23,556 nt of DNA, from positions 1 to 23,556 of the IMG/VR virus record IMGVR_UViG_3300009610_000092. The stretch is one strand, 5' to 3'. Positions 16,396-23,509 of this stretch are shown piece after piece; position 1 is the first letter of the stretch, and each line of letters opens with the position of its first letter. Position numbers and translations under genes: made by a program. This DNA is from a virus. A model generated the notes under the pieces. That model ran no database searches and was not told the origin of the DNA. It saw nothing but the letters and a program-made list of their open reading frames with translations.

Positions 16396-16607
16396 CGCGC
16401 GCCGAGCTCGCCGCCGCCCCGCTCCGGTTCTGGATTTGCCGGCACACCGGGCGCGAAACCCAGTGGAAAGTGCTCACGCAAACGAACGATGAACCGACGG
16501 CGCGCCTGATCTATCGCTGGGAAACCGAACGCCGGCCGGGTGGCGTGCGCCTGATCGATGTCGACGCCTCGATCGTGCTGAAGGAAACGGGCGCGCGCGG
16601 CCGATGA
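16392..16607 (+). CDS. Small hypothetical protein
   Basis: This 71-residue product starts at a GTG overlapping the previous stop. It has RFWICRHTGRETQWKVLTQT and then RWETERRPGGVRLIDVDASI, a mix of strand and charged helix. One Cys-containing turn (CRH) is present. I do not recognise it. Its stop is overlapped by the next start, so the genes are probably translated together. Confidence 0.55.
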   Translation: MTRAELAAAPLRFWICRHTGRETQWKVLTQTNDEPTARLIYRWETERRPGGVRLIDVDASIVLKETGARGR

Positions 16608-16897
16608 GACTGATCCACGTCCTCGCGATTGTGCTCGGGTTCGGCCTCGGGTGGGCGATGGTCGCCTGTCGCGCGACGGTGAGCCTGTCGCTCGGGGATC
16701 CGGCGCCCGTCACCGTGCCGGCACCCGTCGTGCCGGCGGCCCCAGCGGCGGCCTCGTGGATCGTGGTCGTGCGGGCCGGCACCTTCGCGACCACGTACGG
16801 CCCGTTTCCCTCGCTCGCGGCCGCGGAGGCGTGGCGCACCGCGCACCAGTTCACCGCGGCCGATTCGGATATTTTTCAAACCCTGAGGCCCGAATGA
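16604..16897 (+). CDS. Secreted or lipoprotein-like small protein
   Basis: This 97-residue protein has a hydrophobic N-terminal segment, IHVLAIVLGFGLGWAMVAC, ending in a lipobox-like AMVAC with Cys22. A Pro/Ala/Val-rich spacer follows, and the C-terminal part (SWIVVVRAGTFATTYGPFPS, AAEAWRTAHQF) resembles a small globular domain. It may be exported and anchored to the membrane, for example a superinfection-exclusion or spanin-type protein, but this is inference. Confidence 0.55.
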   Translation: MRLIHVLAIVLGFGLGWAMVACRATVSLSLGDPAPVTVPAPVVPAAPAAASWIVVVRAGTFATTYGPFPSLAAAEAWRTAHQFTAADSDIFQTLRPE

Positions 16898-17370
16898 GAC
16901 AGAACGCCTTGCCGTTGGATCGGCTCCCGCCGGCCGTCATGCTGGAAGCACAGCACTACCTCGGGAAGTCCCGGCGCGCGCGATGGACGTATCAGGACGA
17001 GTTCGGCGTGATGGTCTGGGCGAATCCGACGAGCCGGCGACTGCCTCAGCAACAGTGGCTCGAACTCGTGCGGTGGTGTCTGACGGGCGAAAAGAATGGC
17101 GGATCACAACAATGGGGACGCGTTCGGCGATTGCTCCTGCAAATCTTTCCAGATGTGACGACGTGCGTGAGTTATTCCGATCCATCGGTCGGGCACACGG
17201 GGGCGCTCTATAAAGCCTGTAATTGGCGTTGGAAACCGACATGGCACCGCCTGAAGCCGCCCCCCAACGGGAGTTGGGTCAAGGGCGCGCCACAAAGCGT
17301 GAAAGATCGCTGGGTGTTCTACCTTCGGCCGGATGCGCTGCGCGAAAGTATTTTGCAGGTGAAGTCATGA
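16894..17370 (+). CDS. Mom-like DNA-modification acyltransferase candidate
   Basis: This 158-residue protein has a signature like that of the phage Mu Mom family, GNAT-fold enzymes that add a carbamoylmethyl group to adenine in phage DNA. The best match is the SYSDPSVGHTGALYKACNW stretch at 93-111, preceded by a helix RVRRLLLQIFPDV and a small cluster SQQW where GNAT proteins bind the acyl donor. The C-terminal half (LKPPPNGSWVKGAPQSVKDR, WVFYLRPDALR) also fits. If active, it would protect DNA from host restriction. The ATG at 16894 overlaps the previous stop; its own stop overlaps a lipoprotein gene. The family call is from memory of the motif and is not proven. Confidence 0.66.
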   Translation: MRQNALPLDRLPPAVMLEAQHYLGKSRRARWTYQDEFGVMVWANPTSRRLPQQQWLELVRWCLTGEKNGGSQQWGRVRRLLLQIFPDVTTCVSYSDPSVGHTGALYKACNWRWKPTWHRLKPPPNGSWVKGAPQSVKDRWVFYLRPDALRESILQVKS

Positions 17371-17915
17371 AACGACTCCTCTTGCTCGGCGTGCTCGGGC
17401 TCGTGGGGTGTCGTGACACGATCGTGCTGTATCCGCCGGGACCGTCACCGAGCGGCGGCGGGATCGTGATCACGAACACCAACACGAACACGAACACCCA
17501 GGACACCCACGACGTGATCAACTTCGCGGCGGCGGCGAATCCCGGTGCGCCGGTGCCGGCGCCCGGCGGCGGCAGTGAGACGCCGCTCGGGCTCCCGGCC
17601 GGCGCCGAGGCGCTCGCGCGCGGCGTGGCCAACAGCAATGCCGCGCTCCTCTCGCAGGCGTGCGGGGCCACAGGGAACTGGGGGTTTCTCGATCGCGTGG
17701 TGTCGACGCTCGCGGCGTCCGATCCGCGGTGGGGCTACCTCGTGAAAGCCAGCACCGGCCTCATTAGTGCCGACGTGATCGCGTACCGCGCGACGGCCGA
17801 CACGATCGGCGCCTGGGGCGTCGATGTGATTCTCGATGTCTGCGGGGCGAATCAGTTCCAGTGGAACGTGATCGGGCTCGACGTGAGCGCGCAATGGAGC
17901 GCGACCCGCCCATGA
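17367..17915 (+). CDS. Lipoprotein with low-complexity NT linker
   Basis: This 182-residue protein starts with a clear lipoprotein signal, MKRLLLLGVLGLVGC, with the lipid-accepting Cys at 15. A Pro/Ser/Gly linker contains an NT repeat (TNTNTNTNT, DNA about 17473-17498), then a Pro/Ala-rich stretch. The C-terminal domain, about residues 90-180, has two Cys residues (QACG near 98, DVCG near 161) and a segment NWGFLDRVVSTLAASDPRWG with a second DVIAYRATAD. A similar domain, as I recall it, occurs in lipoproteins of soil bacteria. It is probably exported to the cell envelope. Lysogenic conversion is an inference. Confidence 0.75.
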   Translation: MKRLLLLGVLGLVGCRDTIVLYPPGPSPSGGGIVITNTNTNTNTQDTHDVINFAAAANPGAPVPAPGGGSETPLGLPAGAEALARGVANSNAALLSQACGATGNWGFLDRVVSTLAASDPRWGYLVKASTGLISADVIAYRATADTIGAWGVDVILDVCGANQFQWNVIGLDVSAQWSATRP

Positions 17916-17998
17916 AACCGCTCTACGACGCCGATTGGGTGATGTGGTTCACCGTGGGTTTGACGGTGATCCTGGTCTGCATGGCGGTGCTGTTGTGA
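17912..17998 (+). CDS. 28-residue membrane peptide
   Basis: The ATG at 17912 overlaps the lipoprotein stop. The product is MKPLYDADWVMWFTVGLTVI then LVCMAVLL: a short start and one strong span. No family is recognised. It shares a base with the next ATG (TGATG). Its size and shape suggest a small membrane-active protein. Confidence 0.48.
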   Translation: MKPLYDADWVMWFTVGLTVILVCMAVLL

Positions 17999-18204
17999 TG
18001 GCGCGCCTGCGGTGCCTGTTCGGCCGGCACGATCCGCTGTTGACGCAACGCGCGACCGGGGATCGGGTGGTGCTGGTGTGGGTGTGCCGGCACTGTCTGC
18101 GGGAGCTCGGCGTCACCGACCTGCTCGAGGTCGTGGACCCGCGGCCGCTCGTGCGCGCGCGCCTCCAGGCGATCGTGCGCCATGCGAACCGGAGGCCGGA
18201 ATGA
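17998..18204 (+). CDS. Small Cys/His protein, unknown
   Basis: This 68-residue product contains CLFGRHDP near the start and VCRHCLREL near 34, so two Cys and two His could bind a metal. The C-terminal half is a charged helix (RARLQAIVRHANRR). I know no family. The start overlaps the previous stop by one base. Confidence 0.58.
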   Translation: MARLRCLFGRHDPLLTQRATGDRVVLVWVCRHCLRELGVTDLLEVVDPRPLVRARLQAIVRHANRRPE

Positions 18205-18422
18205 AAGCGGCGCCCGCGGAGGTACTGCGGGCCGAGCTCGAGCGGCGCAACGCGGAGCATGAATCGATGTTTTACGTGCTGGTGAACGAGCAGCAGGCCA
18301 TCGACCTCGCGAGCGGCTATGTCCCCAACGCCGTGAAGGCAATGGTCACGACCATGCTGGATTGGCGCCGGCAGGATGAATTACGCGCGGCGCGGCCGGT
18401 GCCGAAACGGCGGAAACTATGA
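18201..18422 (+). CDS. Small helical protein, unknown
   Basis: This 73-residue product is helical: EVLRAELERRNAEHESMFYV, then ANAVKAMVTT-type helices and a basic end (KRRKL). Its ATG overlaps the previous stop by four bases and its own stop is overlapped by the next ATG. No family is recognised. Confidence 0.55.
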   Translation: MKAAPAEVLRAELERRNAEHESMFYVLVNEQQAIDLASGYVPNAVKAMVTTMLDWRRQDELRAARPVPKRRKL

Positions 18423-18694
18423 GAACCGACGACGACGGCGATCGCTATCTGAACCTCCGCGAATTGTCGGACTATACCGGCCTGTCGACGCAACGGTTGC
18501 GGAACCTGACGCGCCGCCCGGACTACCCGCTGCCGCACTATCGCGTCGGCGTGCGGGTGCTCGTGAAGCGTTCCGAGTTCGACGCCTGGGTGCAGGCGGG
18601 GCACGGTGAGCTGCGGCCCGAGCGAGCGGCCGGCGGCGATCGGGTGGCGGTGATCGCCGCGGCCGCGGTGCGGGCCATTCGTGGTGGTAGATAG
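18419..18694 (+). CDS. Excisionase-like HTH DNA-binding protein
   Basis: This 91-residue protein has a MerR/Xis-type winged helix: YLNLRELSDYTGLSTQRLRN, PLPHYRVGVRVLVKRSEFDA and a W. Such proteins steer the direction of integrase or act as small regulators. The gene lies 0.4 kb upstream of the integrase, fitting an excisionase. The C-terminal Ala/Arg part is likely disordered. It is moderately sure as a DNA-binding protein; the excisionase role is inferred. Confidence 0.72.
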   Translation: MRTDDDGDRYLNLRELSDYTGLSTQRLRNLTRRPDYPLPHYRVGVRVLVKRSEFDAWVQAGHGELRPERAAGGDRVAVIAAAAVRAIRGGR

Positions 18695-18712
18695 CTATAC
18701 ATTTGCTATACT
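18694..18712 (+). promoter_or_regulatory. Extended -10 promoter with GCTATAC direct repeats
   Basis: TGCTATACT holds an extended -10 element (TG at 18704-18705 and TATACT at 18707-18712). The start of transcription would be near 18719, the A of the next gene's ATG, so the mRNA would have no leader. GCTATAC occurs at 18694-18700 and 18705-18711, eleven bases apart, a spacing suited to two dimers of a ribbon-helix-helix regulator. Confidence 0.62.
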
Positions 18713-18718
18713 GGTCGT

Positions 18719-18913
18719 ATGACACCACCACTCCAGAGTCAACCGCGACACCAATTCAATATCCGCCTTGATCCGGCGCTCTACGACGCGCTGCAAGCGA
18801 TCCGGGCGCGCGAGGGAGTCAGCCTCTCCGAGCAAGTCCGCCGCGCGATTCACACCTGGGTCGCGGCACACAGCGGCCGACGGGCACCCGCGCGCCGGAA
18901 GGCGGCCGTATGA
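18719..18913 (+). CDS. Ribbon-helix-helix regulator (CopG-like)
   Basis: This 64-residue protein has QFNIRLDPALYDALQAIRAR and then SLSEQVRRAIHTWVAAH, the strand-helix-helix shape of Arc/CopG repressors, with a basic C-terminal tail. It probably binds the GCTATAC repeats in its own promoter. Together with the next two genes it may control the integrase. The start is the first ATG after the -10 element. The role as autorepressor is inferred. Confidence 0.75.
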   Translation: MTPPLQSQPRHQFNIRLDPALYDALQAIRAREGVSLSEQVRRAIHTWVAAHSGRRAPARRKAAV

Positions 18914-19104
18914 CGCCGCACGAAATCCGCCAACAGATTCACTTGATTCTCGATAGTCACGCCGAGGCGCTCGCGGCGATCCGCGCGGCCGATACCGCGC
19001 TCAAGGTCGTGTTCGCCTCGCACGACGCCGCGCTGGTGTCGGCGATCGAGGCGAACCGGGCCGCGCTCGGGCTCCTCAACCGTCTGCTCGCGGAGCCCGA
19101 ATAA
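18910..19104 (+). CDS. Small helical protein before integrase, unknown
   Basis: This 64-residue product is helical: MTPHEIRQQIHLILDSHAEA then LAAIRAADTALKVVF and AIEANRAALGLLNRLLAEPE. Its ATG overlaps the regulator stop by four bases and its stop overlaps the integrase ATG by one base. It is expressed with both. No family is recognised. Confidence 0.58.
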   Translation: MTPHEIRQQIHLILDSHAEALAAIRAADTALKVVFASHDAALVSAIEANRAALGLLNRLLAEPE

Positions 19105-20297
19105 TGGCCTTCCCACGATCGGACGGCGCGACCGTCAAGCGGGTGGGCGCCGGCCGCTCGCCCTGGCGGGTGCAGTGGTATGCCGGCGAGGGCGCCGACC
19201 GCAAGGCCACAACCCGCTGGTGTGCGACCGAGGGCGAGGCGCGCGCGATTGAAGCGGCGATCGAGGCCGGGCTCCGGCGGCCGGTGCTCCCGGCGGCGGC
19301 GCCGGCACCCGTGACGAAGGCGGGCACCTTCGGCGCCTTCGCGGCGCAGTGGCTCGACACCGTGGTGAGCCGGAAGAAACCCGGCACGGTGCGATCGTAC
19401 CGGCAACTCATGGCGAATCACATCCTGCCGACGCTCGGCCGGGTGCCGCTCACCGATCGCGCGCTCGGCGTGCAGGCGATCGTCGACGTGATGGCCGCCC
19501 GGCAGAAAGCGGGCGTCTCCTGGGGCACGCAGAAATGTATTTTGCGTGTGATTTCCACGGCGTGCCAGTGGGCGAAGCGCACCGGGCACCTGTCGATCAA
19601 CCCGTGCGATCGCCTGCTGATGGAGCTCCGCGACGGCACGAGCGGCGCCGACGATCCCGAGCCGAACCCGCTCACGCAGGCGCAGGCCGACGCCTTCCTG
19701 GCGTGGCTCGAGGCGCGGGCGCCCGTGTGGGTGCCGTACTTTCTCACCCTCCTGCATACCGGCATGCGGCGCGGCGAGGCCTCGGCGCTCCGGTGGTCCC
19801 TGATCGATTTCGCGAAGCGGCGCGCGCTCCTGAAATTCAACTACAGCCCGGCGGCGAAGGGCGATATCACGCTGAAGGGCAAGCGGCCGCATGAGATCGA
19901 CCTCTCCCGCGATGTCGTCGAGGCGCTCCGCGGCGTGCAGGAGCGGATCAAGGTCGTCGACCTCGACGGGCGCCCGGCCTCGCCGTATGTGTTTCTGACG
20001 GCGCGCGGCGCGCGGGTGCTCCCGAAGGGCGGGGTCGACCGGATCTGCGCGCGGGCGATGCGGGCGATCGGCGCCGAGGGGCACACCATGCACGATCTGC
20101 GGGACACCTTCGCGACCTTGCACCTGCTGGCCGATCCCGGCCGGCTCCTGTGGGTGTCGTGGATGCTTGGACACCGGCACACCTCGACCACGCTGGACCG
20201 CTACGCGCGATGGATCCCGACCCAGGTGGGCGGCGCGACGTACGCCGACGCCTTCAACCGGCCGGCGGCGGCCCTGCGACAGGCGGAACAGGCATGA
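19104..20297 (+). CDS. int: Tyrosine-family integrase
   Basis: This 397-residue protein integrates and excises the phage genome. It has an N-terminal arm-binding-like domain (about 1-60, with WRVQWYAGEG), a core-binding domain (about 73-180, FGAFAAQWLDTVVSRKKPGT) and a catalytic domain. The catalytic set is complete: R222 in TGMRRGEASALRW, K258 or K260 in the hairpin (TLKGKRP), H330 and R333 in HDLRDTFA, H357 in LGHRHT and Y367 in TLDRYARW. The length is normal. The gene sits in the interior with a repeat-rich stretch right after it, as expected if attP is there. It shares one base with the preceding stop and overlaps the next ATG by four. Confidence 0.94.
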   Translation: MAFPRSDGATVKRVGAGRSPWRVQWYAGEGADRKATTRWCATEGEARAIEAAIEAGLRRPVLPAAAPAPVTKAGTFGAFAAQWLDTVVSRKKPGTVRSYRQLMANHILPTLGRVPLTDRALGVQAIVDVMAARQKAGVSWGTQKCILRVISTACQWAKRTGHLSINPCDRLLMELRDGTSGADDPEPNPLTQAQADAFLAWLEARAPVWVPYFLTLLHTGMRRGEASALRWSLIDFAKRRALLKFNYSPAAKGDITLKGKRPHEIDLSRDVVEALRGVQERIKVVDLDGRPASPYVFLTARGARVLPKGGVDRICARAMRAIGAEGHTMHDLRDTFATLHLLADPGRLLWVSWMLGHRHTSTTLDRYARWIPTQVGGATYADAFNRPAAALRQAEQA

Positions 20298-20440
20298 CCG
20301 AGAGCCGGATCTGGTGGTGGTGGCGATCCGTGCAGTGCTTCTGGTTGGGACGGCATGACTACCGGACGGGCCCGTGGTTCTCGGAACCGTGGGGGACGCG
20401 CTGTCTCTGGTGTGGCGCCCCAAAGGAGGAACAGGCATGA
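20294..20440 (+). CDS. 48-residue Trp/Cys-rich zinc-knuckle-like protein
   Basis: The ATG at 20294 overlaps the integrase stop. The product is MTESRIWWWWRSVQCFWLGR then HDYRTGPWFSEPWGTRCLWC and GAPKEEQA. It has a Cys, an HDY and a CLWC end, so a metal site is possible. Similar tiny proteins are often found in phage genomes. The function is unknown. Confidence 0.5.
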   Translation: MTESRIWWWWRSVQCFWLGRHDYRTGPWFSEPWGTRCLWCGAPKEEQA

Positions 20441-20601
20441 AGCAACAGCGGCGCATGGCGATGTCCCGGCAGGTGCTCAACAGCACCCGGCGGCCGGCGG
20501 CGGCGGCGCCCGTAAGTGATCCGAAACCGCAAGGTCGAAATGAAGGGCGGAATGGCGAGGCCTCAAGGTCGAAATGGCGGCGGACGAAACCCGGTAAGTG
20601 A
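20437..20601 (+). CDS. Basic 54-residue hypothetical peptide
   Basis: A strong Shine-Dalgarno sequence AAGGAGG at 20423-20429 lies seven bases before the ATG. The product is Arg/Lys/Gly-rich and likely disordered (RRMAMSRQVLNSTRRP, then QGRNEGRNGEASRSKWRR). The CAAGGTCGAAATG repeats lie within it, so part of the coding sequence doubles as a DNA site. Whether the peptide matters is unclear. Confidence 0.48.
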   Translation: MKQQRRMAMSRQVLNSTRRPAAAAPVSDPKPQGRNEGRNGEASRSKWRRTKPGK

Positions 20602-20747
20602 TAGCGAATAGAGACACTTACGACCGTCAAAAACGTGACGGGGGGATACTAAAGCATTATCTTAAAACCCGCAAAAACATTGAATGTTTTTGACGCAAGG
20701 TCGAAATGAAATGACCGGTAAACACGGATAAACACGATCCACTTACG
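20511..20747. other. Candidate attP region with several repeat classes
   Basis: Several repeats cluster after the integrase: CGTAAGTG at 20511-20518, a near copy GGTAAGTG at 20593-20600, and the inverted CACTTACG at 20615-20622 and 20740-20747. CAAGGTCGAAATG occurs at 20530, 20564 and 20696. An inverted pair CAAAAACAT (20672-20680) / ATGTTTTTG (20684-20692) can also be read as two 7-bp arms around a 7-bp ATTGAAT spacer. Another CAAAAAC is at 20628-20634, and CCGTCA (20624-20629) / TGACGG (20636-20641) forms a stem. TAAACACG is repeated at 20719 and 20729, ten bases apart. The mix resembles the arm-type and core-type sites of an attP, but an origin or an operator array for the next gene is also possible. 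Confidence 0.6.
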
Positions 20748-20764
20748 GCGATTTGGAGGCTCCG

Positions 20765-21637
20765 ATGAATACCGCCATGAAGGTGCTCGACCCGCCCGCA
20801 GTCGACCGCCCGATCCCCAAGGATCAAATGGAACTCGTGAGACGAACAGTGGCGAATGGCGCGACCGCCGACGAGCTCGCGTTGTTCCTGTTCGATTGCC
20901 AACGCCAAGGGGTGCACCCGCTCGACAAACTGATCCACTTCACGAAACGCGGCGGCCGGTATACGCCCGTTACGTCGATCGATTTCATGCGGGCCCAGGC
21001 GGCGGCCTCGGGCGAAATGGCCGGCAGTGATGATCCCGTGTTTGTCACGAGCGACGACGGGAAACCGCTCGCGGCCTCCGTGTGCGTCTACAGAATCACG
21101 TCAGGGCAAAGATACGCATACCAAGCCACCGCACGATGGGCGGAGTACTGCCCCGACAACGCGCCCATGTGGCGCAAAATGCCGTTTACGATGATTGCCA
21201 AATGCGCCGAAGCATTAGCCTTGCGGAAGGCGTTTCCAAAGCAGCTCGCCGGCCTGTACACCACCGACGAAATGGATCAAGCGGGCTCGGGGCAAGGGCG
21301 CGCGGAGATCCTCGACGCGCTCACCACGCCGCCGCCGGCCGCCGAACCCACGCCGCCGCCTGCGCCCAAGATTGGCGGCGCCGTCGTGATCACCCAGGTG
21401 GATCCCGCCCCGCCGGGCGGCAAGATTGTGGGGTACCTCGAGCACACCGGGCAACCGGGCGGCGCCGACCACCTCCCGCTCTTCGATGCGTACCTCCTGG
21501 CCTTCGCGGTCGAATGTTGCGATAACAAGACGCCGGTGTTCGTGACCACCAAACCGGGCAAGACGAGCGGCAAGGCGTACGTGACCGGGATCCGCCCGGC
21601 CGAGGATCCCGGCGTGCCGGCCGACCTGGCGTTCTGA
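20765..21637 (+). CDS. bet: Bet/RecT-type single-strand annealing protein
   Basis: This 290-residue protein promotes annealing of complementary single strands in phage recombination. The RecT/Bet signature is at about 135-170: MWRKMPFTMIAKCAEALALR, KAFPKQLAGLYTTDEM. The N-terminal half (NGATADELALFLFDCQRQGV, PLDKLIHFT) also fits. After a Pro-rich linker near 188-210, a C-terminal domain of about 75 residues (VVITQVDPAPPGGKIVGYLE, VFVTTKPGKTSGKAYVTGI) is beta-rich, and I do not recognise it. The ATG at 20765 follows a GGAGG at 20755-20759. No partner exonuclease is seen next to it. The stop overlaps the next ATG. Confidence 0.88.
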   Translation: MNTAMKVLDPPAVDRPIPKDQMELVRRTVANGATADELALFLFDCQRQGVHPLDKLIHFTKRGGRYTPVTSIDFMRAQAAASGEMAGSDDPVFVTSDDGKPLAASVCVYRITSGQRYAYQATARWAEYCPDNAPMWRKMPFTMIAKCAEALALRKAFPKQLAGLYTTDEMDQAGSGQGRAEILDALTTPPPAAEPTPPPAPKIGGAVVITQVDPAPPGGKIVGYLEHTGQPGGADHLPLFDAYLLAFAVECCDNKTPVFVTTKPGKTSGKAYVTGIRPAEDPGVPADLAF

Positions 21638-22515
21638 TGGCTGAACGGCTGATCCGAGTCTTTCCTCGCCGCACGACCGCGACGCCGATCGATCCCCTGG
21701 CCTATACCGGGCGGCCGGATTTATTCGCGGAGGCGGACGCCGTGCACGTGTCGGTCACGTTCACCCAGGACAAACCGATCGCCGAACGTCTCGCGGACGC
21801 ATGGCGGCACGTGGCGCCGGTGACCGTGGGCGGAGTGGCGTACGGTGACGATAGTCTCGAGTTTATTCCTGGCCGCTATATCAAACCGGGCTACACCATT
21901 ACGTCGCGCGGGTGTCCGCGCCGATGTTGGTTTTGCGGCGTGTGGAAAAAATGGCCGACGGCGCACCCGCTCCCGATTTATGACGGGTGGAATATCCTCG
22001 ACGATAATTTGCTGGCCTGTCCCGAGTGGCATGTGCGCGCCGTGTTCGCCATGCTGGCGCGGCAACCGCGGCGGGTCGCCTTTACGGGCGGCCTCGAGGC
22101 ACTCGCGTTACAGGATTATCAAGTGGAGCTCCTGGCAGGCTTGCATCCCCGACCCACGATGTTCTGGGCGTATGATCCCGGTGATGCGTTCGACACCTTG
22201 CGATCGGCGGCGGCGCGGATGCTGGGGGCGGGATTTACGGCGGCCTCGCACCGGCTCCGCTGTTATGTGCTGATCGGCTATCCGCACGACACGTTTACGG
22301 CCGCCACCGGACGCCTCGAGCAAATGCTCGGGATCGGGTTGACGCCGCACGCGATGCTTTGGCAACCCGAGTTACCCAGCCAAGACAAATGGCGCCCGGC
22401 GCCGGCGTGGCGGCGATTTCAACGGCAATGGGCGCGGCCGGCGATTATCCATCGGGCGCCCGTCGCCGATATCCCGGCGCCGCGCGTGTTTTTTTTGCGT
22501 CCAATGGGTTCGTGA
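21637..22515 (+). CDS. Phage radical SAM protein
   Basis: This 292-residue protein has the CxxxCxxC iron-sulfur motif at C93, C97 and C100 (RGCPRRCWFC), which binds a [4Fe-4S] cluster and S-adenosylmethionine. Other segments, WNILDDNLLACPEWHVRAVF, FTGGLEALALQDY and RCYVLIGYPHDTF, fit a phage-borne radical SAM family. I do not know its substrate; a role in modifying DNA or a nucleotide is possible. The neighbouring Bet gene and the zinc-ribbon gene that follows at once suggest it is expressed with the recombination genes. The start overlaps the previous stop by one base. Confidence 0.84.
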   Translation: MAERLIRVFPRRTTATPIDPLAYTGRPDLFAEADAVHVSVTFTQDKPIAERLADAWRHVAPVTVGGVAYGDDSLEFIPGRYIKPGYTITSRGCPRRCWFCGVWKKWPTAHPLPIYDGWNILDDNLLACPEWHVRAVFAMLARQPRRVAFTGGLEALALQDYQVELLAGLHPRPTMFWAYDPGDAFDTLRSAAARMLGAGFTAASHRLRCYVLIGYPHDTFTAATGRLEQMLGIGLTPHAMLWQPELPSQDKWRPAPAWRRFQRQWARPAIIHRAPVADIPAPRVFFLRPMGS

Positions 22516-22779
22516 ATGCCGACGGCCGGCAATGTCCTCTGTGGGTGCGGGCGGTTCATGCAGTGTAAGAAAAACAGCGTCACCGTCGAGGAACTGCTCG
22601 AGGACGGTTCGCCGTACAAACTGTGGGACGCCGACCTGTATGCCTGTCCTGATTGCGGCGCCGAGACGATCACGGGATTCGCGCATGAGCCGATGATGGA
22701 AGCGTGGCACCCGAACTATGCCGCGCAACGGGATCGCCTCGCCCGACTGGCGCCGATTTACCCCGGCCGCTCGAGCTGA
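22516..22779 (+). CDS. Zinc-ribbon protein
   Basis: This 87-residue protein carries CGCGRFMQCKKN near the start and ACPDCGAETITG near 43-54, two Cys pairs that fit a four-Cys zinc ribbon. A segment with LWDADLY lies between. It starts at the base after the radical SAM stop and may be its partner, such as an electron donor or metal adaptor, but this is a guess. It shares a base with the next ATG. Confidence 0.7.
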   Translation: MPTAGNVLCGCGRFMQCKKNSVTVEELLEDGSPYKLWDADLYACPDCGAETITGFAHEPMMEAWHPNYAAQRDRLARLAPIYPGRSS

Positions 22780-22901: not shown

Positions 22902-23121
22902 GTGCTGCCCCTGGTGGCTCCGCGGCGTGCACCGACGCCGCCGCGGTGCCGACCTGGAGGATATGTGGCGCACGCTCTACGCACGCGCCGACACCCTCGA
23001 GGAAGCGCGGTTAGCCTGGGAGGTGTTCCGCGCCCAGGACGGGCAAGAGCATTGGCGCTGTCCCTGCGGGCGCCCGATTGCGGACCTGTTCGGTACCCTC
23101 ACGATTCACTTGGCACCATGA
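22894..23121 (+). CDS. Small Cys-containing protein, unknown
   Basis: This 75-residue product begins at a GTG overlapping the previous gene by eight bases. It has ECCPWW near the start, a helix with DTLEEARLAWEVFRAQDG, and CPCGRPIADL near 56-65, so four Cys could bind a metal. A later ATG at 22963 has a TGGAGG two bases before it, which is too close. The start is uncertain. Confidence 0.5.
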   Translation: MGECCPWWLRGVHRRRRGADLEDMWRTLYARADTLEEARLAWEVFRAQDGQEHWRCPCGRPIADLFGTLTIHLAP

Positions 23122-23123
23122 GT

Positions 23124-23162
23124 CGTTCGCTAGCGAACGCCGTGACCATTCGCTAGCGAACG
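23124..23162. repeat. Two identical palindromes before the HNH gene
   Basis: CGTTCGCTAGCGAACG (23124-23139) is a perfect 16-bp palindrome. A second copy, TTCGCTAGCGAACG (23149-23162), has the same 12-bp core. Their centres are 23 bp apart, close to two helical turns. They lie in the only real gap in this region. They could be operators for a dimeric regulator, or terminase-binding or cos-flanking sites, given the HNH and terminase neighbours. Confidence 0.68.
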
Positions 23163-23191
23163 ACCAGGTGTATTCTCCCGAGGTCACGGTA

Positions 23192-23509
23192 ATGCGGTTC
23201 TGCGCCCAGCCCGGATGCCCCGCCACCGTCGAGCGTGGGCGCTGTCCCGCCCATGCCGTGACGCTCGAGCATGGCCGACCGAACTGGGACATCCGTAAGT
23301 GGTACGACACCATGCGTTGGCGGCGGCTGCGCCTCGAGGTGTTACGGGAAGCGGCCTATGCCTGTGCCCAGTGTGGGCAGATTACCCTCGCCCTTGATGT
23401 CGATCACATCGTCAAGCACGACGGCGATCCCGATCGGTTCTGGGACCGGGACAACCTGCAGGCGCTGTGCATTCCCTGTCATTCCAGTAAGACCGCACAG
23501 GGATCCTGA
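23192..23509 (+). CDS. HNH endonuclease
   Basis: This 105-residue protein has an N-terminal knuckle (C4, C9, C18, H21) and a C-terminal HNH domain: CAQC at about 58-61, VDHIVKH with D71 and H72, DRDNLQALC with N88, and CIPCH at 92-97. In many cos-type phages an HNH protein next to the terminase is needed for packaging. If the window ends are joined, this gene lies just upstream of the terminase. The ATG at 23192 follows GAGGT; an earlier in-frame ATG at 23078 would read through the palindromes and is less likely. Confidence 0.9.
   Translation: MRFCAQPGCPATVERGRCPAHAVTLEHGRPNWDIRKWYDTMRWRRLRLEVLREAAYACAQCGQITLALDVDHIVKHDGDPDRFWDRDNLQALCIPCHSSKTAQGS

What the first reader, a model, noticed from the sequence alone, without database searches (positions are those of the whole stretch)
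16894..22515. Mom-like acyltransferase and radical SAM enzyme in one small genome
A gene with a Mom-type signature (SYSDPSVGHTGALYKACNW at 93-111) and a radical SAM gene (C93, C97, C100) lie 4.3 kb apart. Mom in phage Mu modifies adenine to a carbamoylmethyl form. Radical SAM enzymes in phages are of mostly unknown function. Together they could be parts of a DNA hypermodification route, which would shield the phage from restriction. They are not adjacent, so the link is a hypothesis.
Basis: partly seen in the sequence, partly recalled or inferred. Interest (0 to 1): 0.74.

Follow-up and report, generated by a model that had tools for sequence, protein, structure and literature searches.

The report
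Two unlinked cargo genes in phage
A small temperate phage carries a shortened but apparently intact relative of the DNA-protecting enzyme Mom and, 4.3 kb away, a common phage radical SAM enzyme of unknown function; hundreds of related loci give no sign that the two work together.

Summary
P0001 (16894-17370, 158 aa) is a Mom-family GNAT protein: Pfam PF25680 at 43 bits (cut-off 27.1), phrog_1384, and a predicted fold whose best PDB match is phage Mu Mom (8bv8). It keeps the serine (S71) whose mutation inactivates Mom, plus the other family motifs. P0002 (21637-22515) is a radical SAM protein (C93/C97/C100, phrog_9298; best fold match AprD4).

The proposed joint route is not supported. The rSAM is absent from 48 records carrying close Mom relatives. 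Mom-type genes lie near the rSAM in 5 of 203 rSAM loci, no more often than in sister phages sampled through terminase (viral comparison 3/123 vs 4/80, p=0.44). Phage Mu has no radical SAM match. A sister phage carries an rSAM at a different site; others carry a Mom without it. Neither gene has a conserved neighbour.

Both are best read as independently acquired cargo: Mom as a stand-alone adenine-modifying anti-restriction enzyme, the rSAM as a separate single-gene enzyme spread through phages and conjugative elements, substrate unknown. Both are new members of known kinds. The rSAM's excess of DNA methyltransferase neighbours in bacterial loci (27/75 vs 12 expected) is the only lead towards DNA modification, and it is weak.

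The parts
16894..17370 (+). Mom-family GNAT protein (158 aa), putative adenine-modifying anti-restriction enzyme; short subfamily
   Evidence: PF25680 43 bits; phrog_1384; all 38 subfamily members match PF25680; AlphaFold pLDDT 89; Foldseek best hit Mu Mom 8bv8, E 6e-7
16604..16897 (+). 97-aa ORF with a lipobox-like N-terminus, ATGA overlap with mom; family unknown
   Evidence: no PHROG match
17367..17915 (+). lipoprotein-like ORF, ATGA overlap with the end of mom; family unknown
   Evidence: sequence; no PHROG match
20753..21637 (+). RecT/Bet single-strand annealing protein, directly upstream of and overlapping the rSAM start (TGATG)
   Evidence: PF03837 E 2.8e-22; phrog_2780 E 7.9e-31
21637..22515 (+). 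radical SAM protein (292 aa), CX3CX2C at C93/C97/C100, GG motif G151-G152; substrate unknown
   Evidence: phrog_9298 E 2.6e-15; alignment A4; AlphaFold pLDDT 84; Foldseek best hit AprD4 6fd2, E 1e-6
22516..22779 (+). 87-aa putative zinc-ribbon ORF directly after the rSAM; no match to a Com family
   Evidence: (weak zinc-ribbon hits only)
23078..23509 (+). HNH endonuclease; lies just upstream of terL in sister phages, so the window ends probably join
   Evidence: phrog_144 E 3.3e-28; synteny with L217, L215, L241
52..1656 (+). large terminase subunit, used as the marker for sister phages
   Evidence: phrog_9 E 2e-160; 101 viral relatives
19104..20297 (+). tyrosine integrase: the phage is temperate
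   Evidence: PF00589 E 8e-16; phrog_1 E 2.9e-52

Best explanation
The window is a small temperate tailed-phage genome carrying two independently acquired cargo genes. The Mom-like protein is a stand-alone GNAT-fold enzyme of the Mom family. It most likely adds a Mom-type group (methylcarbamoyl or a similar acyl-derived group) to adenine N6 of phage DNA and so blocks host restriction. Family, fold and conserved catalytic residues are shown; the activity, the added group and the target are inferred from Mu Mom. The radical SAM protein is a separate single-gene enzyme that spreads among phages, prophages and conjugative elements. It presumably generates the 5'-deoxyadenosyl radical (CX3CX2C is shown, activity inferred) on its own unknown substrate. 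The two genes are not parts of one pathway.
For: Mom: PF25680 well above its gathering score and matched by all 38 subfamily members. The predicted model's top PDB hits are both chains of Mu Mom 8bv8, labelled 'inactive mutant S124A'; the mutated serine is S114 of the 231-aa reading and aligns with S71 of P0001, which is at least 90% conserved. H21-Y22, E57, R60, D96, H101, G103, Y106 and A108 are invariant in the subfamily. Independence: rSAM absent from 48 Mom records while two positive controls ring; Mom-type genes near the rSAM in 3/123 viral and 2/80 genomic rSAM loci versus 4/80 sister-phage loci, Fisher p 0.44 for the viral comparison; Mu and five of the six other named Mom phages have no radical SAM match; among sister phages, rSAM without Mom (L217) or Mom without rSAM (L227, L240, L241, L261); in L217 the rSAM sits between terL and the capsid gene, unlike here; no conserved neighbour for either gene.
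Against: Most viral records are fragments, so some absences may be false. In one Chloroflexi MAG contig (L124) a Mom gene ends just upstream of an rSAM relative on the same strand, with about 30 nt between them; this is one case in 203 and its Mom belongs to a different subfamily. P0001 is 158 aa against 231 for Mu Mom and lacks most of Mu's C-terminal region, so DNA binding or target choice may differ. No activity has been measured.
Confidence: 0.8

Rival explanations
1. One reading: the rSAM further modifies the Mom-modified adenine, or makes the group that Mom transfers, so the two genes form one hypermodification pathway.
For: Both genes are in one 23.6-kb genome. One other contig has a Mom directly beside an rSAM relative (L124). 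A further fully Mom-like gene lies about 4 kb from the rSAM in L322.
Against: No co-occurrence beyond background. Mu has no radical SAM match. The genes sit in separate overlapping-gene clusters 4.3 kb apart. Sister phages carry only one of them.
Confidence: 0.04
2. The rSAM is itself a DNA or nucleotide modification or anti-restriction enzyme, independent of Mom, working with or in place of DNA methyltransferases.
For: Loci found in bacterial genomes have a DNA methyltransferase within 2 kb in 27/75 cases versus 12.0 for random positions (0 of 500 shuffles reach it); C5 type 19 versus 7.5. The family spreads in phages and conjugative elements.
Against: Viral loci show no significant excess (9 versus 6.7). 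Terminase, which is not a modification gene, shows a similar excess of N4/N6 methyltransferases (10 versus 2.9), so gene-module structure alone can produce it. No methyltransferase was recognised in this window.
Confidence: 0.2
3. The Mom-like protein is a GNAT that no longer acts on DNA but acylates another substrate such as a protein or small molecule; the short form has lost the DNA-binding region.
For: It is 158 aa against 231 and lacks most of the C-terminal part of Mu Mom. A related short family, NF045478 XF1762, also scores, at a sub-threshold level. Superposition on 8bv8 is only moderate (TM 0.64).
Against: The family residues, including the inactivating serine, are kept in nearly all of 38 relatives. 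Mom outranks every other GNAT in the fold search.
Confidence: 0.15

Closest known systems
Phage Mu Mom (PF25680; PDB 8bv8)
   Same: GNAT fold; HY, ELxR, SxxD and GxxYxAxN motifs; the serine whose mutation inactivates Mom; phage gene
   Different: 73 residues shorter; most of Mu's C-terminal region missing; no Com-type activator gene found; upstream overlapping gene is lipoprotein-like; 18% identity in the alignment
PHROG 1384 Mom-like DNA modification proteins of named phages (e.g. Enterococcus and Salmonella phages)
   Same: same PHROG family, small genes without a fixed partner
   Different: this belongs to a subfamily with conserved WxPTWHRL.PPP and KDRW motifs, found here in 55 viral contigs
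PHROG 9298 radical SAM domain protein (e.g. Caudoviricetes sp. vir215)
   Same: same PHROG; single gene in phages; CX3CX2C
   Different: about 31% identity over 63% of the query; vir215 is assigned to an archaeal host
AprD4, radical SAM 1,2-diol dehydratase (PDB 6fd2)
   Same: best fold match; radical SAM core
   Different: TM 0.52 and 14% identity only; AprD4 is a larger antibiotic-biosynthesis enzyme, so this gives no substrate

Membership tests
Mom (PF25680) | score above the curated cut-off | tested here: met
   43 bits against 27.1; all 38 subfamily members match at E <= 0.01
Mom (PF25680) | GNAT-type fold nearest to Mu Mom | tested here: met
   model pLDDT 89; top two Foldseek hits are 8bv8 chains, E 6e-7 and 5e-6
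Mom (PF25680) | serine essential for activity (S124 in 8bv8 numbering) | tested here: met
   S114 of the 231-aa Mu reading is the mutated residue; it aligns with S71 of P0001, at least 90% conserved in 38 relatives
Mom (PF25680) | modifies adenine in DNA and blocks restriction | not testable with these tools
   needs nucleoside mass spectrometry and restriction assays
Mu com-mom operon | overlapping upstream com gene encoding a zinc-finger translational activator | tested here: not met
   the gene overlapping the mom start is a lipoprotein-like ORF with no PHROG match; the zinc-ribbon ORF at 22516 has no Com match
Radical SAM superfamily | CX3CX2C cluster motif | tested here: met
   C93, C97, C100 invariant in 28 sequences
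Radical SAM superfamily | Pfam PF04055 above cut-off | tested here: not met
   20.1 bits against 29.5; phrog_9298 matches clearly and the fold search gives AprD4 first, so membership of the superfamily rests on motif, PHROG and fold
Mom-rSAM hypermodification pathway (proposed) | co-occurrence above background in related genomes | tested here: not met
   0/48 Mom records have this rSAM; 3/123 viral and 2/80 genomic rSAM loci versus 4/80 sister loci have a Mom-type gene
Mom-rSAM hypermodification pathway (proposed) | joint nucleoside product | not testable with these tools
   needs co-expression and mass spectrometry

The most novel reading that the evidence does not exclude
The phrog_9298-type radical SAM family, spread as a single gene through phages, prophages and conjugative elements of many bacterial phyla, is an uncharacterised DNA-modification or anti-restriction enzyme that acts alongside DNA methyltransferases.
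Probability: 0.18. Interest if true: 0.65.

Novelty: new member of a known kind. Interest (0 to 1): 0.3.

Why it matters
It adds a short, widespread Mom subfamily with well-conserved residues that could be tested as a minimal adenine-modifying enzyme. It also separates this from a radical SAM family whose spread through mobile elements is striking and whose substrate is unknown. Showing that the two genes are not linked avoids chasing a pathway that the comparative data do not support.

Tried and rejected
Gene-neighbour clustering around the rSAM in viral and genomic loci and around Mom found no obligate partner; much of the first run was shadow reading frames and was discarded. A ten-sequence Mom alignment was too diverse to scan with. 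Sequence search of P0002 against PDB found nothing. Mom-type genes near the rSAM in L025, L144 and L336 have an HHRHH or HRHH-like motif; they look closer to XF1762-type GNATs than to Mom (judged by eye), and were still counted as co-occurrences. A weak rSAM hit in one Mom record (G060, 14 bits) coincides with a larger, different radical SAM gene. dN/dS for mom could not be computed (dS saturated). Rfam and tRNA scans of the window were empty. Paper searches found no study of this rSAM family, and the Mu Mom mechanism paper I looked up is not held.

Full report
What is there. The window is an IMG/VR virus record of 23,556 bases with no exact terminal repeat. It encodes a large terminase, portal, capsid, tail and integrase proteins, so it is a temperate tailed phage. 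In sister phages the HNH gene lies just upstream of terL (L217, L215, L241). Here HNH ends at 23509 and terL starts at 52, so the window ends probably join and the genome is probably near complete.

The Mom-like gene. ORF 16894-17370 encodes 158 aa. It starts and ends in ATGA overlaps with its neighbours. It scores 43 bits on Pfam Mom (cut-off 27.1) and matches phrog_1384. A three-sequence alignment found 55 viral relatives. In an alignment of 38 sequences, H21, Y22, E57, R60, S93-P97, H101, G103, Y106 and A108 are invariant, and N68, S71, G100 and N110 are at least 90% conserved. Every one of the 38 matches PF25680. The AlphaFold model (pLDDT 89) matches Mu Mom 8bv8 best (E 6e-7, TM 0.64). 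That structure is an inactive S124A mutant. Aligning Mu Mom with the chain shows the changed residue is S114 of the 231-aa reading, which aligns with S71 here. I take the protein to be a working Mom-type enzyme, probably protecting phage DNA by adenine modification. The activity is inferred. It lacks most of Mu Mom's C-terminal region, and no com-like gene overlaps its start.

The radical SAM gene. ORF 21637-22515 (292 aa) overlaps the end of a RecT/Bet gene and is followed directly by a small zinc-ribbon-like ORF. C93, C97 and C100 are invariant in 28 relatives. phrog_9298 matches clearly, Pfam Radical_SAM only below its cut-off. The model (pLDDT 84) matches AprD4 best (E 1e-6, TM 0.52), which places it among radical SAM enzymes but does not give a substrate. 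The family is very widespread: 43 viral relatives, 376 viral loci with a broader query, and 80 loci in genomes of many bacterial phyla, some of them conjugative elements judging by their neighbours. It is under purifying selection (dN/dS 0.10-0.14).

Are the two linked? Four tests say no. (a) None of 48 records carrying a close Mom relative has this rSAM, while two positive controls ring. (b) In loci reaching up to 10 kb either side of the rSAM, Mom-type genes occur in 3/123 viral and 2/80 genomic loci. In 80 loci of sister phages sampled through terminase, Mom occurs in 4; Fisher p is 0.44 for the viral comparison. (c) Mu has no radical SAM match at all. Of 46 Mom records (39 viral records and seven named phages), five have a radical SAM above cut-off, and the three best of these are ORFs of about 500 aa, unlike this one. 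(d) In sister phages one gene occurs without the other, and the rSAM of L217 is inserted between terL and the capsid gene, which points to independent acquisition. The one case against is contig L124, where a Mom of another subfamily ends just upstream of an rSAM. The five viral loci found with that Mom have no rSAM. The caveat is that most viral records are fragments.

What the rSAM may do. In bacterial-genome loci a DNA methyltransferase lies within 2 kb in 27 of 75 cases, against 12.0 for random positions. In viral loci the excess is not significant, and terminase, used as a control, shows a similar excess of N4/N6 methyltransferases. This is a lead, not evidence of function.

Verdict. The joint hypermodification route is not supported. 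Mom-like protein: new member of a known family. Radical SAM: member of a known but uncharacterised phage family. Statements about Mu Mom chemistry beyond the PDB titles come from general knowledge and from PMC7824862.

Noticed in passing
L004-L046, L114-L193, L284-L363: The phrog_9298-type radical SAM is a very common single-gene cargo of phages, prophages and conjugative elements across many phyla, with no obligate neighbour.
   Followed up: partly
L114-L193: DNA C5 methyltransferases lie within 2 kb of the rSAM in 19 of 75 genomic loci against 7.5 expected at random; not significant in viral loci.
   Followed up: partly
L124:654-2061: Chloroflexi MAG contig with a Mom gene ending just upstream of an rSAM relative on the same strand; the only such adjacent pair seen.
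   Followed up: partly
L217:2317-3189; L215:5954-7160: A sister phage (L217) carries an intact rSAM relative between terL and the capsid gene; L215 has only fragments of one there.
   Followed up: partly
L003:6071-6666: A Mom relative whose C-terminal part continues in another reading frame: frameshift or sequencing error.
   Followed up: no
L051:2947-3411; L052:3019-3339: In two Paenibacillus phages a short Mom-like gene lies just after the amidase and near a holin gene, in the lysis region.
   Followed up: no
window 1-23556: No endolysin or holin was recognised among the window proteins scanned.
   Followed up: no
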